Of a DNA stretch of 64,000 nucleotides, positions 42,594 through 50,819 are shown piece after piece. The notes under the pieces were generated by a model, which made no database searches, was not told where the DNA came from, and saw nothing but the letters and a program-made list of their open reading frames with translations. The number at the start of each line of letters is the position of its first letter. The first letter of the stretch is position 1. Source of the stretch: Flavobacterium restrictum (GTDB lineage Bacteria; Bacteroidota; Bacteroidia; Flavobacteriales; Flavobacteriaceae); the NCBI RefSeq assembly GCF_007097245.1, contig NZ_VJZT01000001.1, forward strand, positions 1-64,000, given 5' to 3'. Position numbers and translations under genes: made by a program.

Positions 42594-42959
42594 TCAGGAA
42601 GAAAGATTGTTGTCTAACTTACTTATGAAACCTGTGGTCATCTTTTGAAATTCAATTATTTTATTTTCTATTTCTTCTGTTTTTTCTTTTGATAAATAGT
42701 CATTTTGACAAGCTATCAGTAATTGTGTTTGTAATTCAAATGATGAACCCAAACTAATATTCAAATAATGTTGAAAATGTTTATTTCCTCTATTTGAACC
42801 TTCTGCAATATTTGAAGGCATTGAGACGGAGCATCGATTCATTTGACTGGATAAACTATAAGTTTCCGATTTTGGAAAAGTAAAAGTCAGCTTGTAAATA
42901 TCATTTGTAATTTCCATAGCTAAAATCCAAATTTTCAAATTCTTAAAATTGTGCCTCAT
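42594..42959 (-). CDS. Four-helix-bundle protein (23S rRNA-IVS/Avd-like family)
   Basis: 121 aa, mainly helical. Key pieces: HNFKNLKIWILAMEITNDIYKLTFTFPKSETYSLSSQMNRCSVSMPSNIAEGSNRG (the IAEGSxR motif defines the family) and FQHYLNISLGSSFELQTQLLIA. Relatives were first seen in rRNA intervening sequences and as the Avd subunit of diversity-generating retroelements; free-standing copies are common in Bacteroidota and their function is unknown. No reverse transcriptase is nearby. It interrupts the fad operon between fadA and fadE and has a 14-bp repeat array directly before its ATG, which suggests insertion as a cassette. Confidence 0.85.
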   Translation of the reverse strand: MRHNFKNLKIWILAMEITNDIYKLTFTFPKSETYSLSSQMNRCSVSMPSNIAEGSNRGNKHFQHYLNISLGSSFELQTQLLIACQNDYLSKEKTEEIENKIIEFQKMTTGFISKLDNNLSS

Positions 42960-44338: not shown

Positions 44339-46729
44339 CTAATTGCGAAGCGGTTTTCCTTTGGTTAACATAAACTGAATTCGCTCCAATGTTTTTCTTT
44401 CGGTACAAAGTGATAAAAAGGCTTCTCTTTCAATATCCAATAAATACTGTTCCGATACCAAAGTAGCTTCGGATAAATCACCACCAGCCATAACATAAGC
44501 CAGTTTGTTGGCTATTTTCAAATCGTGTTCCGAGATGTATTTTCCAGCAACCATTTGATTGGTTCCAACCAAAAACATTCCCAATGCTTGTTTACCCAAA
44601 ACTTTCACATCCGTTCTGCGTATGGGTTGAGTGTAACCCGCTTCTGCCATTAATAAGGCGTGTTTCTTGGCTTCGGCAATTTGACGGTCTTTGTTGACTA
44701 CGATAATATCTTTTCCATGTTGCAAAAGTCCAGTGTCAAATGCTTCGTAACCTGAAGTTGATACTTTTGCCATTGCGATGGTCATGAAATATTCTTGAAG
44801 AACATTCAATTCCACATCGTTTTTACGAAATAAATCAGATGCACGCAAGGCCAATTCTTTAGAACCTCCACCGCCAGGAATAACCCCAACACCAAATTCA
44901 ACCAATCCCATATACGTTTCTGCTGCGGCCACTACTTTGTCAGCGTGTAAACTCATTTCGCAACCACCGCCAAAAGTCATTCCGTGAGGAGCAACTACAA
45001 CTGGGATTCCAGAATAACGCACACGCATCATCGTGTCTTGGAACATTTTGATGGCCATATTCAACTCATCGTATTCTTGCTCCACCGCCATCATGAATAT
45101 CATTCCGATATTGGCACCAACAGAGAAATTCGCTGCTTGGTTTCCAATAACCAAACCTTGGTATTCTTTTTCGGATAAATCTATCGCTTTATTAATCGCA
45201 GCCAAAACGTCACCACCAATGGTATTCATTTTGGATTGGAATTCTAAATTCAAAATTCCGTCTCCCAAATCTTGGATGATAGCGCCACTATTGCTCCATA
45301 CTTTTTTGCTTTCGCGAATGTTGTTCAGGATTATAAAGGCATCTTGACCAGGAACTTTAGTTTGAGATTTTGTTGGAATATTGTAGAAATAAGTCGCTCC
45401 TTCTTTAATTGTATAAAAACTGGTATTTCCAGATGCTAACATTTCGGTAACCCAAGCTGCAGGTTCAAGGCCTTCGGCTTTCATGATTTCGATTCCTTTT
45501 TCAACACCAATGGCGTCCCAAATTTCGAATGGACCATTTTCCCATCCAAAACCAGCTTTCATGGCATCGTCTATTTTGTATAATTCATTTGAGATTTCAG
45601 GAATACGGTTCGAAACATACCCAAACATTCCAGCAAAACTTTTTCTGTAGAATTCTCCTGCTTTGTCTTTCCCTTTAACTAAAACCTTAAATCTGTTGAT
45701 TGGTTTGTCGATTGTTTTTGTCAATTCCAAAGTAGCAAAAGAAGCTCTTTTAGCAGGACGGTATTCCAAAGTATCTAAATCTAAAGAAAGAATGTCTTTG
45801 TCTACTTTCTTATAAAAACCTTGACCTGTTTTGCTACCCAACCATTTGTTTTCCATCATTTTGTTGACAAATTCCGGAAGTTTGAACAATTCGTGTTGTT
45901 CGTCTGTTGGGCAGTTTTCGTAGATTCCGTTGGCAACATGCACCAAAGTATCCAATCCAACCACATCCACAGTTCTGAAAGTAGCCGATTTTGGGCGACC
46001 AATAACCGGTCCCGTCAATTTATCTACTTCTTCAATAGTCAATCCCAACTCTTTTACAAGGTGGAACAAACTTTGAATTCCGTAAATACCAATTCGGTTT
46101 CCGATAAATGCAGGAGTATCTTTGGCAACAACCGAAGTTTTACCCAAGAATTTTTCTCCGTATATGGTTAAGAAATCCAAAACTTCAGATGAAGTTTGTG
46201 GACCAGGAATAATTTCGAATAATTTTAAGTAACGCGCTGGGTTAAAAAAGTGAGTCCCACAGAAGTGTTTCTGGAAATCTTCGCTACGTCCTTCGCTCAT
46301 GAAGTGAATTGGAATACCAGAAGTGTTGGATGTTACCAAAGTTCCCGGTTTTCTAAATTTTTCAATTTGTTCAAAAACCATTTTTTTGATATCCAAACGC
46401 TCCACAACCACCTCGATGATCCAATCTACATTGGCAATTTTAGCCATATCATCCGTTGTGTTTCCAGTGGTAATTCGGCTTGCGAATTTTTGACTGTAAA
46501 TAGGGGATGGCTTCGATTTTAAGGAGTTGGCCAAATGTTCGTTTACCACACGGTTGCGAACAATTTTACTCTCAAGCGTTAGCCCTTTTTTGGCTTCGGC
46601 ATCCGTCAATTCTCTTGGAACAATGTCCAAAAGTAAGACTTCTACACCAATGTTGGCAAAATGACACGCAATTCCTGAACCCATAATTCCGGATCCAATT
46701 ACTGCAACTTTTTTAATGGTTCGATTCAT
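44339..46729 (-). CDS. fadN: 3-hydroxyacyl-CoA dehydrogenase/enoyl-CoA hydratase, FadN type
   Basis: 796 aa. Two activities in the FadN order: dehydrogenase first (NAD motif VIGSGIMGSGIACHFANIG, about 10-28; catalytic His in GTHFFNPARYLKLFEIIPG; VVAKDTPAFIGNRIG) and a crotonase-type hydratase in the C-terminal third (FSVGANIGMIFMM, VVAPHGMTFGGGCEMSLHAD, GLVEFGVGVIPGGGGSKELA). It hydrates enoyl-CoA and oxidises the hydroxyacyl product. The start overlaps the end of the marR gene by 17 bp, so they are translationally coupled. Confidence 0.93.
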   Translation of the reverse strand: MNRTIKKVAVIGSGIMGSGIACHFANIGVEVLLLDIVPRELTDAEAKKGLTLESKIVRNRVVNEHLANSLKSKPSPIYSQKFASRITTGNTTDDMAKIANVDWIIEVVVERLDIKKMVFEQIEKFRKPGTLVTSNTSGIPIHFMSEGRSEDFQKHFCGTHFFNPARYLKLFEIIPGPQTSSEVLDFLTIYGEKFLGKTSVVAKDTPAFIGNRIGIYGIQSLFHLVKELGLTIEEVDKLTGPVIGRPKSATFRTVDVVGLDTLVHVANGIYENCPTDEQHELFKLPEFVNKMMENKWLGSKTGQGFYKKVDKDILSLDLDTLEYRPAKRASFATLELTKTIDKPINRFKVLVKGKDKAGEFYRKSFAGMFGYVSNRIPEISNELYKIDDAMKAGFGWENGPFEIWDAIGVEKGIEIMKAEGLEPAAWVTEMLASGNTSFYTIKEGATYFYNIPTKSQTKVPGQDAFIILNNIRESKKVWSNSGAIIQDLGDGILNLEFQSKMNTIGGDVLAAINKAIDLSEKEYQGLVIGNQAANFSVGANIGMIFMMAVEQEYDELNMAIKMFQDTMMRVRYSGIPVVVAPHGMTFGGGCEMSLHADKVVAAAETYMGLVEFGVGVIPGGGGSKELALRASDLFRKNDVELNVLQEYFMTIAMAKVSTSGYEAFDTGLLQHGKDIIVVNKDRQIAEAKKHALLMAEAGYTQPIRRTDVKVLGKQALGMFLVGTNQMVAGKYISEHDLKIANKLAYVMAGGDLSEATLVSEQYLLDIEREAFLSLCTERKTLERIQFMLTKGKPLRN

Positions 46730-47180
46730 CAGTAGTGTTTTCAGTTTGATTAAATATATTTTTTTCTTGAATTAACTCATTTATAATTTCAGCAACTTCC
46801 ATAAAATGCTGTAATTTTTCTTCGGAAACGTGTTGTTTTATGGTTTCATTAAATTTCAAAACGGTATTTTTAGATAGTTCTCTTTTTTCTTTGCCCATTT
46901 CGGTCAGGAAAATCAGTACGCCACGCCCATCAAACGGATTTTTTTCTCTTATTATTAACCCTTTGTCCTCCATAGACTTAAGGGTTCTTGTCAAGCTAGT
47001 GGCTTCCATTCCCATCTTTGGACCTAGGGCTGTTGAGGGTGTTCCTTTTTCTTTATCCATACTCAACAAAGCAAATCCTGTTGCCATAGTTGCGCTGTAT
47101 TTTGCAGCTTCTTCGTTGTACATTCTTGACACGGCTTGCCATGTGGCTCTCAAAATGTAATCTATTGTTTTGTCTTTCAT
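46713..47180 (-). CDS. MarR-family regulator of the fad operon
   Basis: 155 aa. Winged-helix MarR protein: helix-turn-helix ALGPKMGMEATSLTRTLKSMEDKGLIIREKNPFDGRGVLIFLTEMGKEKREL, with the wing at DGRGVLIFLT and flanking dimerisation helices. It is the first gene of the fad operon and overlaps fadN by 17 bp. A near-perfect palindrome overlaps its promoter region (47212-47239), so autorepression released by a fatty-acyl ligand is a reasonable model; this is inferred from layout, not shown. Confidence 0.9.
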   Translation of the reverse strand: MKDKTIDYILRATWQAVSRMYNEEAAKYSATMATGFALLSMDKEKGTPSTALGPKMGMEATSLTRTLKSMEDKGLIIREKNPFDGRGVLIFLTEMGKEKRELSKNTVLKFNETIKQHVSEEKLQHFMEVAEIINELIQEKNIFNQTENTTDESNH

Positions 47181-47211: not shown

Positions 47212-47239
47212 AAATATACTATGCACGCATAATATATTT
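47212..47239. promoter_or_regulatory. Candidate MarR operator 1
   Basis: A 28-bp palindrome centred between 47225 and 47226 in which 12 of 14 base pairs are complementary; core TATGCACGCATA. It lies directly upstream of the -7 box of the operon. Confidence 0.65.
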
Positions 47240-47270
47240 GTTTTTTTTAAATTTTTATAAATATAAATAA

Positions 47271-47295
47271 AAACTCCTTTGAAAAAGAGGAGTTT
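47271..47295. other. Hairpin between the two operator-like sites
   Basis: An 8-bp stem (47271-47278 with 47288-47295). No strong T run on either side; possible weak terminator or cruciform. Confidence 0.4.
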
Positions 47296-47302
47296 ACTTA
47301 TT

Positions 47303-47322
47303 ATTATGCGTGCGTAGTATAT
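47303..47322. promoter_or_regulatory. Candidate MarR operator 2
   Basis: 20-bp inverted copy of operator 1 (19 of 20 positions match the reverse complement of 47213-47232), 70 bp away. It is less symmetric by itself (TATGCGTGCGTA core). The rest of 47323-47585 contains no gene that I can support. Confidence 0.6.
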
Positions 47323-47496
47323 TTTTTGTTTTATGGGGTGTTGTTAATTTTTGAGATTTTTATAAAAAGAGATGAAATTTTGAATACGAAGAGACAAATG
47401 ATGAATTCCTAACTCTTTTTAAATGAGATTAAAAGCATCTTAACGGATTTAGTAACAGTTTATTGATTTTCGTAATTTTAAGAAAATTATTATAAT

Positions 47497-47504
47497 TATA
47501 TTTG
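47497..47504 (+). promoter_or_regulatory. Candidate -7 box (TATATTTG) upstream of the injection-system remnant
   Basis: Perfect TAnnTTTG on the plus strand, 81 bp before the ATG at 47586; no -33 TTG at the right distance. Confidence 0.35.
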
Positions 47505-47585
47505 AAGGAATAATAGTGTTTGCTTTTGGTCACATTAAGAAAATAATTCAAAAATAAAAGACTTGTTAAACAAGAATCTAAAAAA

Positions 47586-48104
47586 ATGGTTAATCAACAA
47601 GAAGGAATTGCAATTAGAAATGCAGGTATTGTATTACTCAATAATTATATCGTGCTGTTGCTGGAACGTTTAGATTTGCTTGAGAAAAATACGTTTAAAA
47701 ATGAGGAATGCCAATTGCAAGGAGTGTATTACTAGCAGTATTTGGTTACGGGTTTATCTATAACAGAAGAAAGTTTTTTGCCACTTAATAAAGTATTGTG
47801 TGGATTACCATTAGCAACACCAGTTGCCGATGGTATTGAGATAATAGATAGCCAGAAAAATCTAATTGCTGGACTTATTAATGCAGTAATTTCTCATTGG
47901 ACTACAATTGGTGATACTTCTGTAGATGGCTTTAGAGGCAATTGGTTAGTTAGGGATGGATTGTTAGTAGAAAAAGAAGAAAGATGGGAACTAACTGTTG
48001 ACAAGAGGGCATATGATTTATTAATTCATAAATCTCCATTTTCTTTTTCAATTATTAAATATACTTGGATGCTAAAACCTTTGCATGTAATTTGGCTATA
48101 TTAA
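47586..48104 (+). pseudogene. Contractile injection system tape-measure protein, C-terminal remnant with in-frame stop
   Basis: A 173-codon frame interrupted by TAG at 47733-47735. Before the stop: NAGIVLLNNYIVLLLERLDLLE; after it in the same frame: QYLVTG, LPLNKVLCGLPLATPV, VISHWTTIGDTSVDGFRGNWLVRDGLL and RWELTVDKRAYDLLIHKSPFSFSIIKYTWMLKPLHVIW. These are the conserved end of CIS tape-measure (Afp14-like) proteins, which are usually several hundred residues or longer; the N-terminal bulk is missing. The stop replaces what is normally a Leu before QYL, so TTG or TTA to TAG is likely. The sheath gene follows after 39 bp. Confidence 0.78.
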
Positions 48105-48143
48105 AAATAGTAATTTTATAGAATAATTTAAGTATAAGAAATT

Positions 48144-49721
48144 ATGATTGAATCTAATATTAAATCACCAGGTGTTTATATAGATGGTTTAAATGCCTTT
48201 CCAAATTCGGTAGTTCCAGTAGCAACAGCAGTTCCTGCTTTTATAGGTTATACACCTACAGCTTTATACAAAGGAAAATCGTATACTAATGTGGCTCAAA
48301 AAATAACTTCTTTTGCAGAGTTTCAAGCTATTTATTGTTTTCCAGATTCTGCTCCTTTATCGAGTCCAGTGAAGCAATATGCTCCTGAATATTATTTGGT
48401 AAAAGAAAATATCCAACCCCAAAAAGGAAATTATATACTTATGGATAATGCTTATTATTCTATTGTTCCTGATCCAAATACCATTTATTATCTATACAAT
48501 AGTATAAGATTATTTTATGAAAATGGAGGAGGAGATGCTTATATTGTTTCGGTGGGTGGTTATGGAGCACCTTCTAAAAAACCAATAAATGCAGGTAATC
48601 AAATTGTAAATCCTAATGTACAACTAACCGATTTACAAAATGGTTTGACATTACTTTTGAATGAGCAAGAGCCTACGATGTATATTTGTCCCGAAGCAAC
48701 ATTGTTGAGTGTTGAGAATAATGGTACTTTAATGCAAGGAATGTTGAAACAATGTACTGAAATGCAAACTACTATAGCTATTTTTGATATTATAGGATCA
48801 AGAAATCCAGATTCAATTTTATACACAAATGATATTGAAACTTTTAGAAATAATACTGGTTCGCTAGGATTAAATTATGGTACGGCTTATTTCCCTTTTA
48901 TAGGAACTACCATTATGCAAAATCAGGATATCGATTATACAAATTTATTTGGAGGTGATACAAAACAATTACAGGCAATTTTAAATCCTGCGGATAATCC
49001 TAATCCAAGTGTTACAAGTATTATGACAAATATTAATAATCCTTCATCGGGATTATCGTTAATACAAAATAATAATGCTTTAATAAATGCTAGTGAAACC
49101 TATGCCCTTATTATTAAACATATATTGTTTGATGTCAATGTTTTACCTCCTAGTGGTGCCATGGCTGGAGTAATTACTACCATTGATAATCAAGAAGGAG
49201 TGTGGCAAGCGCCAGCTAATACGTCGATAGTAAGTGTTTCTTCGTTGCCTATTAATTTATCAGAAACGCAACAAGGCAACTTGAATATAGATGCTGTTTC
49301 AGGAAAATCTATTAATGCTATTCGTTCTTTTAATGGAATAGGAATTTTAGTTTGGGGTGCAAGAACTTTAGACGGAAATAGCTTGGATTGGAAGTATTTA
49401 TCAGTAAGAAGAACCATGACTTTTTTAGAACAATCTTGCAAGTTGGCTGCAAATGCGTATCTTTTCGAACCCAATGTTAAAAACACATGGGAAGCTGTTA
49501 AAGCTATGATAAGTAGTTTTTTAACATCAATATGGAAACAAGGTGGGTTACAAGGAGCTTCTGCTTCCGATGCATTTTCTGTGGCATGTGGATTGGGAAC
49601 TACTATGACTTCTGATGATATTCTAAACGGATTTATGAATGTAACTGTAAAAGTAGCTATTATTCGTCCTGCAGAATTTATTGTACTTACTTTCCAACAA
49701 GAAATGACTACATCTTCGTAA
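48144..49721 (+). CDS. Phage-tail-like contractile sheath protein (eCIS/T6SS-iv type), orphan
   Basis: 525 aa and apparently complete. N-terminus IKSPGVYIDGLNAFPNSVVPVATAVPAFIGYT is the typical sheath opening; the middle has RLFYENGGGDAYIVSVGGYG and LTLLLNEQEPTMYICPEATLL; the C-terminal sheath domain has GILVWGARTLDGNSLDWKYLSVRRTMTFLEQSCKLAANAYLFEPNVKNTW and ends in VKVAIIRPAEFIVLTFQQEM. In a working system it surrounds the inner tube and contracts to fire it. No tube, baseplate, spike, cap or ATPase gene is present on this side, and the genes that follow are ordinary, so this is a leftover of a deleted locus. The gene is AT-rich and has no obvious terminator. Confidence 0.9.
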   Translation: MIESNIKSPGVYIDGLNAFPNSVVPVATAVPAFIGYTPTALYKGKSYTNVAQKITSFAEFQAIYCFPDSAPLSSPVKQYAPEYYLVKENIQPQKGNYILMDNAYYSIVPDPNTIYYLYNSIRLFYENGGGDAYIVSVGGYGAPSKKPINAGNQIVNPNVQLTDLQNGLTLLLNEQEPTMYICPEATLLSVENNGTLMQGMLKQCTEMQTTIAIFDIIGSRNPDSILYTNDIETFRNNTGSLGLNYGTAYFPFIGTTIMQNQDIDYTNLFGGDTKQLQAILNPADNPNPSVTSIMTNINNPSSGLSLIQNNNALINASETYALIIKHILFDVNVLPPSGAMAGVITTIDNQEGVWQAPANTSIVSVSSLPINLSETQQGNLNIDAVSGKSINAIRSFNGIGILVWGARTLDGNSLDWKYLSVRRTMTFLEQSCKLAANAYLFEPNVKNTWEAVKAMISSFLTSIWKQGGLQGASASDAFSVACGLGTTMTSDDILNGFMNVTVKVAIIRPAEFIVLTFQQEMTTSS

Positions 49722-49772
49722 TTATTAATAAAAAACGGCTCATTAACATAAAATTATTCTTGAACTATTTAT

Positions 49773-50819
49773 TCACCCTTTCTTAAATTCCCCACTATCC
49801 ACATCCCTCAAAAATTGAATTACGCCTTTGAAATAGTTTTTCTGGTCATCATATTGGGAGAGGTGACTTCCGTTGGGACAAAACAAAAAGCGTCCGTTTT
49901 GCACTTCTTTCGACATCCATTTCATGTGTTCAGGATCCATGGTGTCGTATTTAGCTCCAATAACTAGAGTAGGAACGGTAATGGTTTTGAGTCGGGTGGT
50001 GACATCCCAATTTCTTAAAGAGGCATTTCCTGTAATTCCAAATTCGCTTGGCCCTTGCATGTATACATAGACATTGGGGTTGAGGTGTTTGAAGGCTCTA
50101 TTTATGGATTCAGGCCATTGGTCAACAGGCATTCTTAAAATATGTTCGGTATAATAGTATTTAAAAAGCAGTTCACTATATTTTGGGTTGGTGTAATCTT
50201 TGTTTCTTTCAAATGTTTTTATTTGGTCAAAAACGACTTTTGGAAGTTTGGGCCCCAGCACGTCTTCGGCGTATTTATTGTAAGCGGGTGCGCTAGCCAT
50301 CATGTTCGAAATAATCAATCCTTTTAGATTTTTTTGGTATTTCAAGGCATATTCCATCGCCAGAATTCCGCCCCACGATTGCCCTAGTACGTAAAAGTTT
50401 GTGCTGTCGCAACCCAATGCAATTCGCACTTGCTCCACTTCTTCTACAAAACGTTCGTTTGTCCAGAGTCGGTTATCGTTGGGTTGGTCGCTGTAGTAGG
50501 AACCCAATTGATCGTAATAAATGTATTCGATGCTTTCTTTTGGAAAAAAACCATCAAAAGATTCGAAACATTCGTGTGTTAATCCAGGGCCACCATGCAA
50601 CAACAATACTTTTATTGTAGGGTTATTTCCAACGGTTTTTGTCCATACTTTAAATTTTCCTATCGGCGTATTGATGGGAATCATTTTGATGCCACCCGTA
50701 AATTGATCGTCTCTTTTGGAAAAATCCAAATAATTATTGACAACGGTATTTTCTTTTTGTTCTTTGCAACCAGTTAACAGTAGCAAAAGTGCTAAAACGG
50801 ACAAGATTTTTGTTTTCAT
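49773..50819 (-). CDS. Proline-iminopeptidase-like alpha/beta hydrolase, lipoprotein
   Basis: 348 aa. Lipoprotein signal MKTKILSVLALLLLLTGC (Cys18). Alpha/beta-hydrolase landmarks: oxyanion motif HGGPG (75-79), YYDQLGSYYSDQP, nucleophile elbow GQSWGG (146-151, Ser148), the acid Asp in VIGAKYDTMDPEHM and His in NGSHLSQYDD. HGGPG plus GQSWGG with DQxGxGxS-like text is the proline iminopeptidase pattern, so it should release N-terminal proline from peptides at the cell surface. Isolated gene. Confidence 0.85.
   Translation of the reverse strand: MKTKILSVLALLLLLTGCKEQKENTVVNNYLDFSKRDDQFTGGIKMIPINTPIGKFKVWTKTVGNNPTIKVLLLHGGPGLTHECFESFDGFFPKESIEYIYYDQLGSYYSDQPNDNRLWTNERFVEEVEQVRIALGCDSTNFYVLGQSWGGILAMEYALKYQKNLKGLIISNMMASAPAYNKYAEDVLGPKLPKVVFDQIKTFERNKDYTNPKYSELLFKYYYTEHILRMPVDQWPESINRAFKHLNPNVYVYMQGPSEFGITGNASLRNWDVTTRLKTITVPTLVIGAKYDTMDPEHMKWMSKEVQNGRFLFCPNGSHLSQYDDQKNYFKGVIQFLRDVDSGEFKKG

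What the first reader, a model, noticed from the sequence alone, without database searches (positions are those of the whole stretch)
47586..49721. Remnant of a contractile injection system: broken tape-measure end and intact orphan sheath
The sheath is full length, but the tape measure survives only as its last about 170 codons with an in-frame TAG, and no tube, baseplate or cap gene is near. That is what a large internal deletion of an eCIS/T6SS-iv-type locus leaves. An intact sheath without partners is unexpected; it could be recent decay, or the sheath may serve a system elsewhere.
Basis: partly seen in the sequence, partly recalled or inferred. Interest (0 to 1): 0.62.

Follow-up and report, generated by a model that had tools for sequence, protein, structure and literature searches.

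The report
Stand-alone contractile sheath, two-gene cassette
A Flavobacterium genome carries, as a small inserted pair, an intact gene for the contractile sheath of a phage-tail-like syringe and a broken gene for the tail end of its length ruler. Related bacteria keep the same stripped-down sets, without the syringe's base, under natural selection, so these are not simply debris.

Summary
A full-length 525-aa CIS sheath gene (48144-49721) follows a 172-codon piece matching the C-terminal end of CIS_TMP (47586-48104) with one in-frame TAG, and no other component tested exists in this 3.75-Mb genome. The interpretation, a large internal deletion, is not supported. In intact sister clusters the 1290-aa tape measure lies downstream of the sheath, so a deletion cannot put its end upstream. 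Relatives have an empty site: here the pair is an insert of about 2.5 kb between a MarR gene and a hydrolase gene. Most importantly, the short tape-measure gene exists intact as its own 169-188-aa gene in at least 14 other Bacteroidota genomes, several times inside small baseplate-less operons (sheath-tube-TMPc, with or without spike and PAAR). Solo or reduced sheath loci make up 11 of 31 sheath loci among 398 Flavobacterium genomes. Two species with a lone sheath at one shared site show dN/dS 0.17 (95% interval 0.12-0.23), without stops or indels. Best reading: a recurrent, selectively maintained class of reduced CIS loci; the window copy is an extreme two-gene form whose TMPc gene is now broken. 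What the lone sheath does is inferred only (perhaps polysheath tubes).

The parts
47298..49763 (.). insert carrying the two CIS genes, absent from the homologous place in relatives; ends approximate (left end somewhere in 47240-47335, right end in about 49754-49764)
   Evidence: homology to the MarR-hydrolase intergenic regions of G023, G032 and G020 ends and resumes here; local alignments give softer limits; GC 30.9% against 36.5% for the window
47586..48104 (+). TMPc: stand-alone gene for the C-terminal domain of the CIS tape-measure protein (172 codons), interrupted by one in-frame TAG at 47733-47735
   Evidence: PF19268 positions 283-463; intact stand-alone homologs of 169-188 aa with their own start at the same domain edge
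47742..48104 (+). possible restart frame (TTG, 120 aa) downstream of the TAG; would lack the first third of the domain
   Evidence: ORF list; whether it is used is unknown
48144..49721 (+). CIS contractile sheath protein, 525 aa, intact
   Evidence: aligns over its whole length, both terminal arms included, with 23 relatives
46713..47180 (-). left neighbour, MarR-family regulator (not part of the cassette; marks the empty site)
   Evidence: PF01047; conserved in relatives
49773..50819 (-). right neighbour, alpha/beta hydrolase lipoprotein-like (not part of the cassette; marks the empty site)
   Evidence: PF00561; 78-81% identical next to MarR in G023, G032, G020

Best explanation
The locus is a horizontally placed two-gene cassette derived from a type-A Bacteroidota contractile injection system (CIS): a stand-alone gene for the C-terminal domain of the tape measure (TMPc, now broken by one stop codon) followed by an intact sheath gene. 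It belongs to a recurrent class of reduced, baseplate-less CIS loci. Such loci keep the sheath and variously one or two tube proteins, spike, PAAR and the short TMPc, but no gp25 or baseplate wedge genes and no full-length ruler. SHOWN by sequence: class membership, insertion, separate-gene status of TMPc, repeated independent origin, and purifying selection on the sheath in reduced and solo state. INFERRED: how it works. With no baseplate to start from and no ruler, the sheath subunits probably self-assemble through their N- and C-terminal arms into contracted, open-ended tubes (polysheath-like). Where the tube and TMPc are present, TMPc probably serves as the tube nucleator or plug without setting length. 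In this genome, with tube genes absent and TMPc broken, the sheath alone can at most form such tubes. Likelihoods: class and anatomy about 0.9; sheath kept for a function in the class about 0.8; sheath of this very genome still functional about 0.5; polysheath mechanism about 0.35.
For: Empty site in G023/G032/G020. Gene order incompatible with deletion. Intact stand-alone TMPc: Flavobacterium NRK1 172 aa, G149, G127, G074, G088, G257, Pedobacter miscanthi in sheath-gp19a-TMPc-spike-PAAR and Dokdonia L017, G722 and G753, G971 in sheath-gp19a-gp19b-spike-PAAR-TMPc, G1032 in 270aa-sheath-gp19a-TMPc, G995, G855, G1078. TMPc is predicted to fold on its own (pLDDT 86, pTM 0.83). The 'short' state needs at least 4 changes forced by well-supported branches, the solo and partial sheath states at least 3 and 4. 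Solo sheath genomes without any tube, spike, PAAR or gp25: G000, NRK1, G046, G154. Sheath dN/dS: G609-G037, both solo at one shared site, 0.169 (0.123-0.225); reduced at a shared site, G164-G043 0.104 and G107-G180 0.129; no gaps or stops (synteny). Neutral drift over 0.2-0.39 changes per site would give about 13-20 stops. Tail sheath proteins form polysheaths without other phage proteins (PMC6357053).
Against: The window's own TMPc is broken. Its sheath branch has more amino-acid change than its sisters (dN/dS about 0.08 on the window branch from pairwise distances against about 0.02 among full-cluster sisters) and 4 private changes at otherwise invariant sites (E15G, G224S, P229S, Y255F by alignment column); up to roughly 6% of that branch could have been neutral, over which zero stops has a chance of about 5%. 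Reduced loci were found by searching with the sheath, so preferential retention of the sheath is not proven. Three genomes keep TMPc with no sheath at all (G127, G088, G257), with weaker constraint (0.34-0.41). No experiment shows assembly or function; the sheath model was poor (pLDDT 47).
Confidence: 0.6

Rival explanations
1. Transferred scrap in decay: a fragment of a CIS cluster was rearranged and inserted, has no function here, and is at an early stage of decay.
For: TAG in TMPc; no partner gene in the genome; faster amino-acid change and private changes in the sheath.
Against: The sheath is intact and the rest of TMPc changes at an ordinary rate for the domain (dN/dS about 0.09-0.16 against full-length relatives); the same kinds of reduced set recur and are under purifying selection elsewhere.
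Confidence: 0.3
2. In-place large deletion of a complete CIS cluster.
For: Only tape measure and sheath pieces remain.
Against: Wrong order for a deletion; relatives show an empty site, not a full cluster; short TMPc is a separate gene in many genomes.
Confidence: 0.05
3. The sheath serves another contractile system in the same cell.
For: Some reduced loci (G043, G107, G180, G037) sit in genomes with a second, AlgoCIS-like cluster.
Against: The window genome, NRK1, G046 and G154 have no tube, spike or PAAR anywhere; no second sheath was found in G000, G046 or G154; G000, NRK1, G046, G609 and G154 lack the cap and baseplate proteins tested.
Confidence: 0.05
4. The lone sheath (with or without TMPc) is a decoy or immunity factor that blocks or caps incoming CIS, T6SS or phage-tail parts by joining their sheaths in a dominant-negative way.
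For: Kept under selection without other parts; frequent movement between sites (different sites in NRK1 and G046 despite sister sheaths); one lone sheath beside an integrase-like gene (L012).
Against: No direct evidence; no match in the PADLOC defence library; no viral contig carries the sheath at this sensitivity.
Confidence: 0.1
5. The TAG is a sequencing or assembly error and the cassette is a fully intact TMPc-sheath pair.
For: It is the only lesion in 172 codons, while the rest is conserved.
Against: No reads are available to test it; the surrounding residues (NEECQLQGVYY) are also somewhat unusual.
Confidence: 0.15

Closest known systems
Extracellular CIS / T6SS-iv of Bacteroidota, AlgoCIS type (PMC8894135; PDB 7adz)
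   Same: Sheath is a clear homolog; TMPc is homologous to the C-terminal domain of the CIS tape-measure family PF19268; nearest relatives are full CIS clusters in Flavobacterium.
   Different: No tube, baseplate, spike, cap or ATPase in the genome; the tape measure is reduced to its last domain as a separate gene.
T6SS orphan islands (hcp/vgrG/PAAR loci; PMC13098142)
   Same: Parts of a contractile machine travelling apart from the full cluster.
   Different: Those keep tube and spike parts as effector carriers for a resident T6SS; here the sheath is kept, often alone, in genomes without any system to join.
Polysheaths of phage tail sheath proteins (T4 gp18, phiKZ, FV3 gp053; PMC6357053)
   Same: Sheath protein acting without tube or baseplate is known to form stable tubes; proposed here as the working state.
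   Different: Those are recombinant or by-product assemblies, not a maintained genomic function.
Tape-measure-related CIS effectors of Actinobacteria (Sle1; PMC13277306, PMC11126660)
   Same: A tape-measure-derived protein separate from the ruler.
   Different: Those are described as phage-TMP-related effectors packaged in a complete CIS with exchangeable functional domains; TMPc here is the conserved C-terminal domain of the CIS's own PF19268 family with no added domain.

Membership tests
Extracellular contractile injection system (eCIS) | contractile sheath | tested here: met
Extracellular contractile injection system (eCIS) | inner tube (Phage_T4_gp19 / CIS_tube) | tested here: not met
   no match anywhere in G000
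Extracellular contractile injection system (eCIS) | spike, PAAR and gp25 baseplate wedge | tested here: not met
   no match anywhere in G000
Extracellular contractile injection system (eCIS) | 912-aa baseplate protein, Pvc16 cap/terminator and cluster AAA+ ATPase | tested here: not met
   only a generic FtsH-like AAA at 29% identity
Extracellular contractile injection system (eCIS) | full-length tape measure | tested here: not met
   only positions 283-463 of PF19268, with a TAG
Reduced baseplate-less CIS locus (class described here) | type-A sheath without gp25/baseplate genes and without a full tape measure in the locus | tested here: met
Reduced baseplate-less CIS locus (class described here) | stand-alone intact TMPc gene (present in only part of the class) | tested here: not met
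   gene present with its own start but interrupted by TAG in this genome; intact in L025, L017, G971, G1032, NRK1
Reduced baseplate-less CIS locus (class described here) | sheath under purifying selection in reduced state | tested here: inconclusive
   met for sister pairs of the class; for the window branch the average is low (about 0.08) but when it became solo is unknown
T6SS orphan island | hcp and/or vgrG/PAAR genes supplying a resident T6SS | tested here: not met
   no tube, VgrG-like or PAAR match in G000
Polysheath-forming protein | self-assembly into tubes without other parts | not testable with these tools
   needs expression and electron microscopy

The most novel reading that the evidence does not exclude
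Contractile sheaths have been domesticated many times in Bacteroidota as stand-alone structures. A lone sheath gene, with or without a ruler-less tape-measure domain and a tube, makes a baseplate-free filament or tube with its own cellular role, separate from injection.
Probability: 0.3. Interest if true: 0.85.

Novelty: new variant of a known kind. Interest (0 to 1): 0.58.

Why it matters
Surveys of CIS generally count whole clusters, and the literature searched here describes no class of sheath-centred loci without a baseplate. If such loci are functional, the sheath, the most energetic part of the machine, has a use outside injection. The natural minimal sets (sheath-tube-TMPc) would also show which parts suffice to start a tube and a sheath without baseplate or ruler, a question that can be tested directly with three genes.

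Tried and rejected
In-place deletion was rejected by gene order and the empty site. A partner system elsewhere in the genome was rejected by whole-genome searches. A prophage origin was not supported: no viral contig encodes the sheath at this sensitivity. No target-site repeats longer than 10 AT-rich bases flank the insert. The structure prediction of the sheath was too poor to use; the TMPc model is good but has no PDB match by Foldseek or VIA-align and no sequence match. NCBIfam and PADLOC give no model for TMPc or sheath. A strict link between short TMPc and reduced sheath in the same genome was considered: all 5 non-window short-TMPc genomes of a family-wide draw carry a sheath (in G1078 a distant one inside its own fuller cluster), but 3 Flavobacterium genomes have TMPc without any sheath, so the link is not absolute.

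Full report
OBSERVATION. The region holds a full 525-aa sheath frame (48144-49721) and, 40 bp upstream on the same strand, a 172-codon frame (47586-48104) matching the last part of the CIS tape-measure family PF19268, interrupted by one TAG at 47733-47735. The sheath is closest to CIS sheaths among solved structures. Genome-wide searches of the window's assembly (3.75 Mb, 64 contigs, scored 100% complete) find one sheath, one CIS_TMP match, and no gp19 tube, CIS_tube, spike, PAAR or gp25. They find no Pvc16, 270-aa, 300-aa or 912-aa baseplate protein either, and only a generic FtsH-like AAA. The sister genome G225, searched in the same calls, gives all of these, so the searches work.

NOT AN IN-PLACE DELETION. 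Full sister clusters (Flavobacterium sp. 9AF, J27, F. cheongpyeongense, F. jejuense, F. hydrophilum) read Pvc16_N - 270 aa - sheath - gp19 - gp19 - CIS_tube - spike - PAAR - gp25 - 1271 aa - 912 aa - tape measure (about 1290 aa) - further genes - AAA+. The tape measure lies about 14 kb downstream of the sheath, whereas in the window its end is upstream. Relatives G023, G032 and G020 have the same MarR and hydrolase neighbours with no CIS gene between them. Homology stops near 47298 and resumes near 49763, which defines an insert of about 2.5 kb (limits soft).

THE SHORT TAPE-MEASURE PIECE IS A GENE. Flavobacterium sp. NRK1, whose sheath is also alone, has an intact 172-aa gene starting at the same domain edge. 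A genus survey of 249 genomes found more (G149, G127, G074, G088, G257), with three of these genomes having no sheath at all. In Pedobacter miscanthi it sits inside sheath-gp19a-TMPc-spike-PAAR, in Dokdonia L017 before Pvc16-270aa-...-sheath-gp19b, in G971 after sheath-gp19a-gp19b-spike-PAAR, and in G1032 in 270aa-sheath-gp19a-TMPc, where the TMPc frame overlaps the end of gp19a. In a family-wide draw of 299 genomes, the short TMPc genes outside the window occurred in five genera, and all five genomes also encode a sheath; in G1078 that sheath is distant (39%) and lies in its own fuller cluster. On a tree the window TMPc groups with full-length tape measures of the same Flavobacterium clade as its sheath (89/87, not fully supported), and the short state arose at least four times. 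The domain is predicted to fold alone.

REDUCED SHEATH LOCI RECUR. Of 36 loci from a scan of 84,980 species genomes, at least 11 lack the baseplate genes: solo sheath in L012, L014, L020, L021, L028, L033; sheath with tube in L008, L031, L034; larger reduced sets in L017 and L025. Among 398 Flavobacterium genomes 31 carry such a sheath; 20 have cluster neighbours on both sides and 11 are reduced (G000, G037, G043, G046, G107, G154, G164, G180, G707 = NRK1, G722, G753). The sheath tree puts the window sheath beside the full-cluster Flavobacterium sheaths (99/98) and needs several independent reductions (at least 3 for solo, at least 4 for partial). Some rows labelled full there are contig-limited or, as L022, may be reduced, so these counts are approximate.

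SELECTION. G609 and G037 carry a lone sheath at one shared site (neighbours 93-100% identical); their sheaths show dS 0.39, dN 0.066, dN/dS 0.169 (0.123-0.225), no gap and no stop. Reduced loci at a second shared site (G164, G043, G107, G180; synteny) give 0.10 and 0.13 for the two close pairs. Full-cluster pairs are tighter (0.015-0.06), so constraint is relaxed but real; neutral drift over 0.2-0.39 changes per site would give about 13-20 stops. TMPc at one shared site in five species gives 0.25-0.45 against 0.10-0.22 for the PhyH gene beside it. For the window sheath, pairwise distances give about 0.08 on its own branch, with four private changes at otherwise invariant columns. Apart from the TAG, the window TMPc looks ordinary (0.09-0.16). 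A recent loss of function in this genome therefore cannot be excluded.

HOW IT MAY WORK. Inference: without a baseplate and ruler an ordered injection device cannot be built. Tail sheath proteins do, however, polymerise alone into stable tubes with contracted geometry, for which the N-terminal arm was needed in phage FV3 gp053 (PMC6357053). Both arms are conserved in the lone sheaths; the window has one change at a near-invariant arm residue (E15G). TMPc may nucleate or plug the tube where a tube gene is present.

LITERATURE. Searches of 5.39 million open papers found no description of sheath-centred reduced CIS loci or of a stand-alone CIS_TMP C-domain gene; subscription papers and preprints are not covered. 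T6SS orphan islands (PMC13098142) are the nearest analogue, but they keep tube and spike parts, not the sheath.

LIMITS. The reduced loci were collected with the sheath as bait, so preferential keeping of the sheath is not shown. Genomes are one per species, so no strain-level data exist. G-handles carry no species names. The proposed mechanism rests on analogy.

Noticed in passing
window 47216-47235 and 47301-47320: A palindrome-like motif (ATACTATGCACGCATAATAT) upstream of the MarR gene occurs a second time, inverted, at the left edge of the insert; it may be the MarR operator and could place the inserted genes under that regulator.
   Followed up: partly
L206:1576-3086, L207:552-2013, L125:8146-9648, L127:8967-10470, L128:8887-10390: In five Flavobacterium species the short TMPc gene sits directly upstream of a phytanoyl-CoA dioxygenase (PhyH) gene at one conserved site, overlapping it in G722 and G753.
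   Followed up: partly
L039, L040, L049: Other CIS_TMP proteins of about 480-530 aa are followed directly by proteins rich in VQKK/KEEE repeats that look like DUF4157-type CIS-associated proteins.
   Followed up: no
L012:8878-11581: In an unclassified Bacteroidetes MAG a lone intact sheath lies next to an integrase-like gene and phage-like genes, suggesting that solo sheaths can ride on mobile elements.
   Followed up: no
L008:6834-11999 and window 49773-50819: A Lacinutrix sheath-plus-tube locus lies about 2 kb from a homolog (71% identical) of the hydrolase that flanks the window's sheath; coincidence or shared insertion neighbourhood.
   Followed up: partly
L119, L121, L122, L118: At one conserved Flavobacterium site a reduced CIS shrinks stepwise from sheath-tube-tube-spike-PAAR (G164) to sheath-tube-spike-PAAR (G043, G180) to sheath plus a truncated tube fused to a PAAR remnant (G107), while the sheath stays open.
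   Followed up: yes
window 42594-42959: A 121-aa ORF resembles the four-helix-bundle (23S rRNA intervening sequence-type) proteins; recognised from its sequence only.
   Followed up: no
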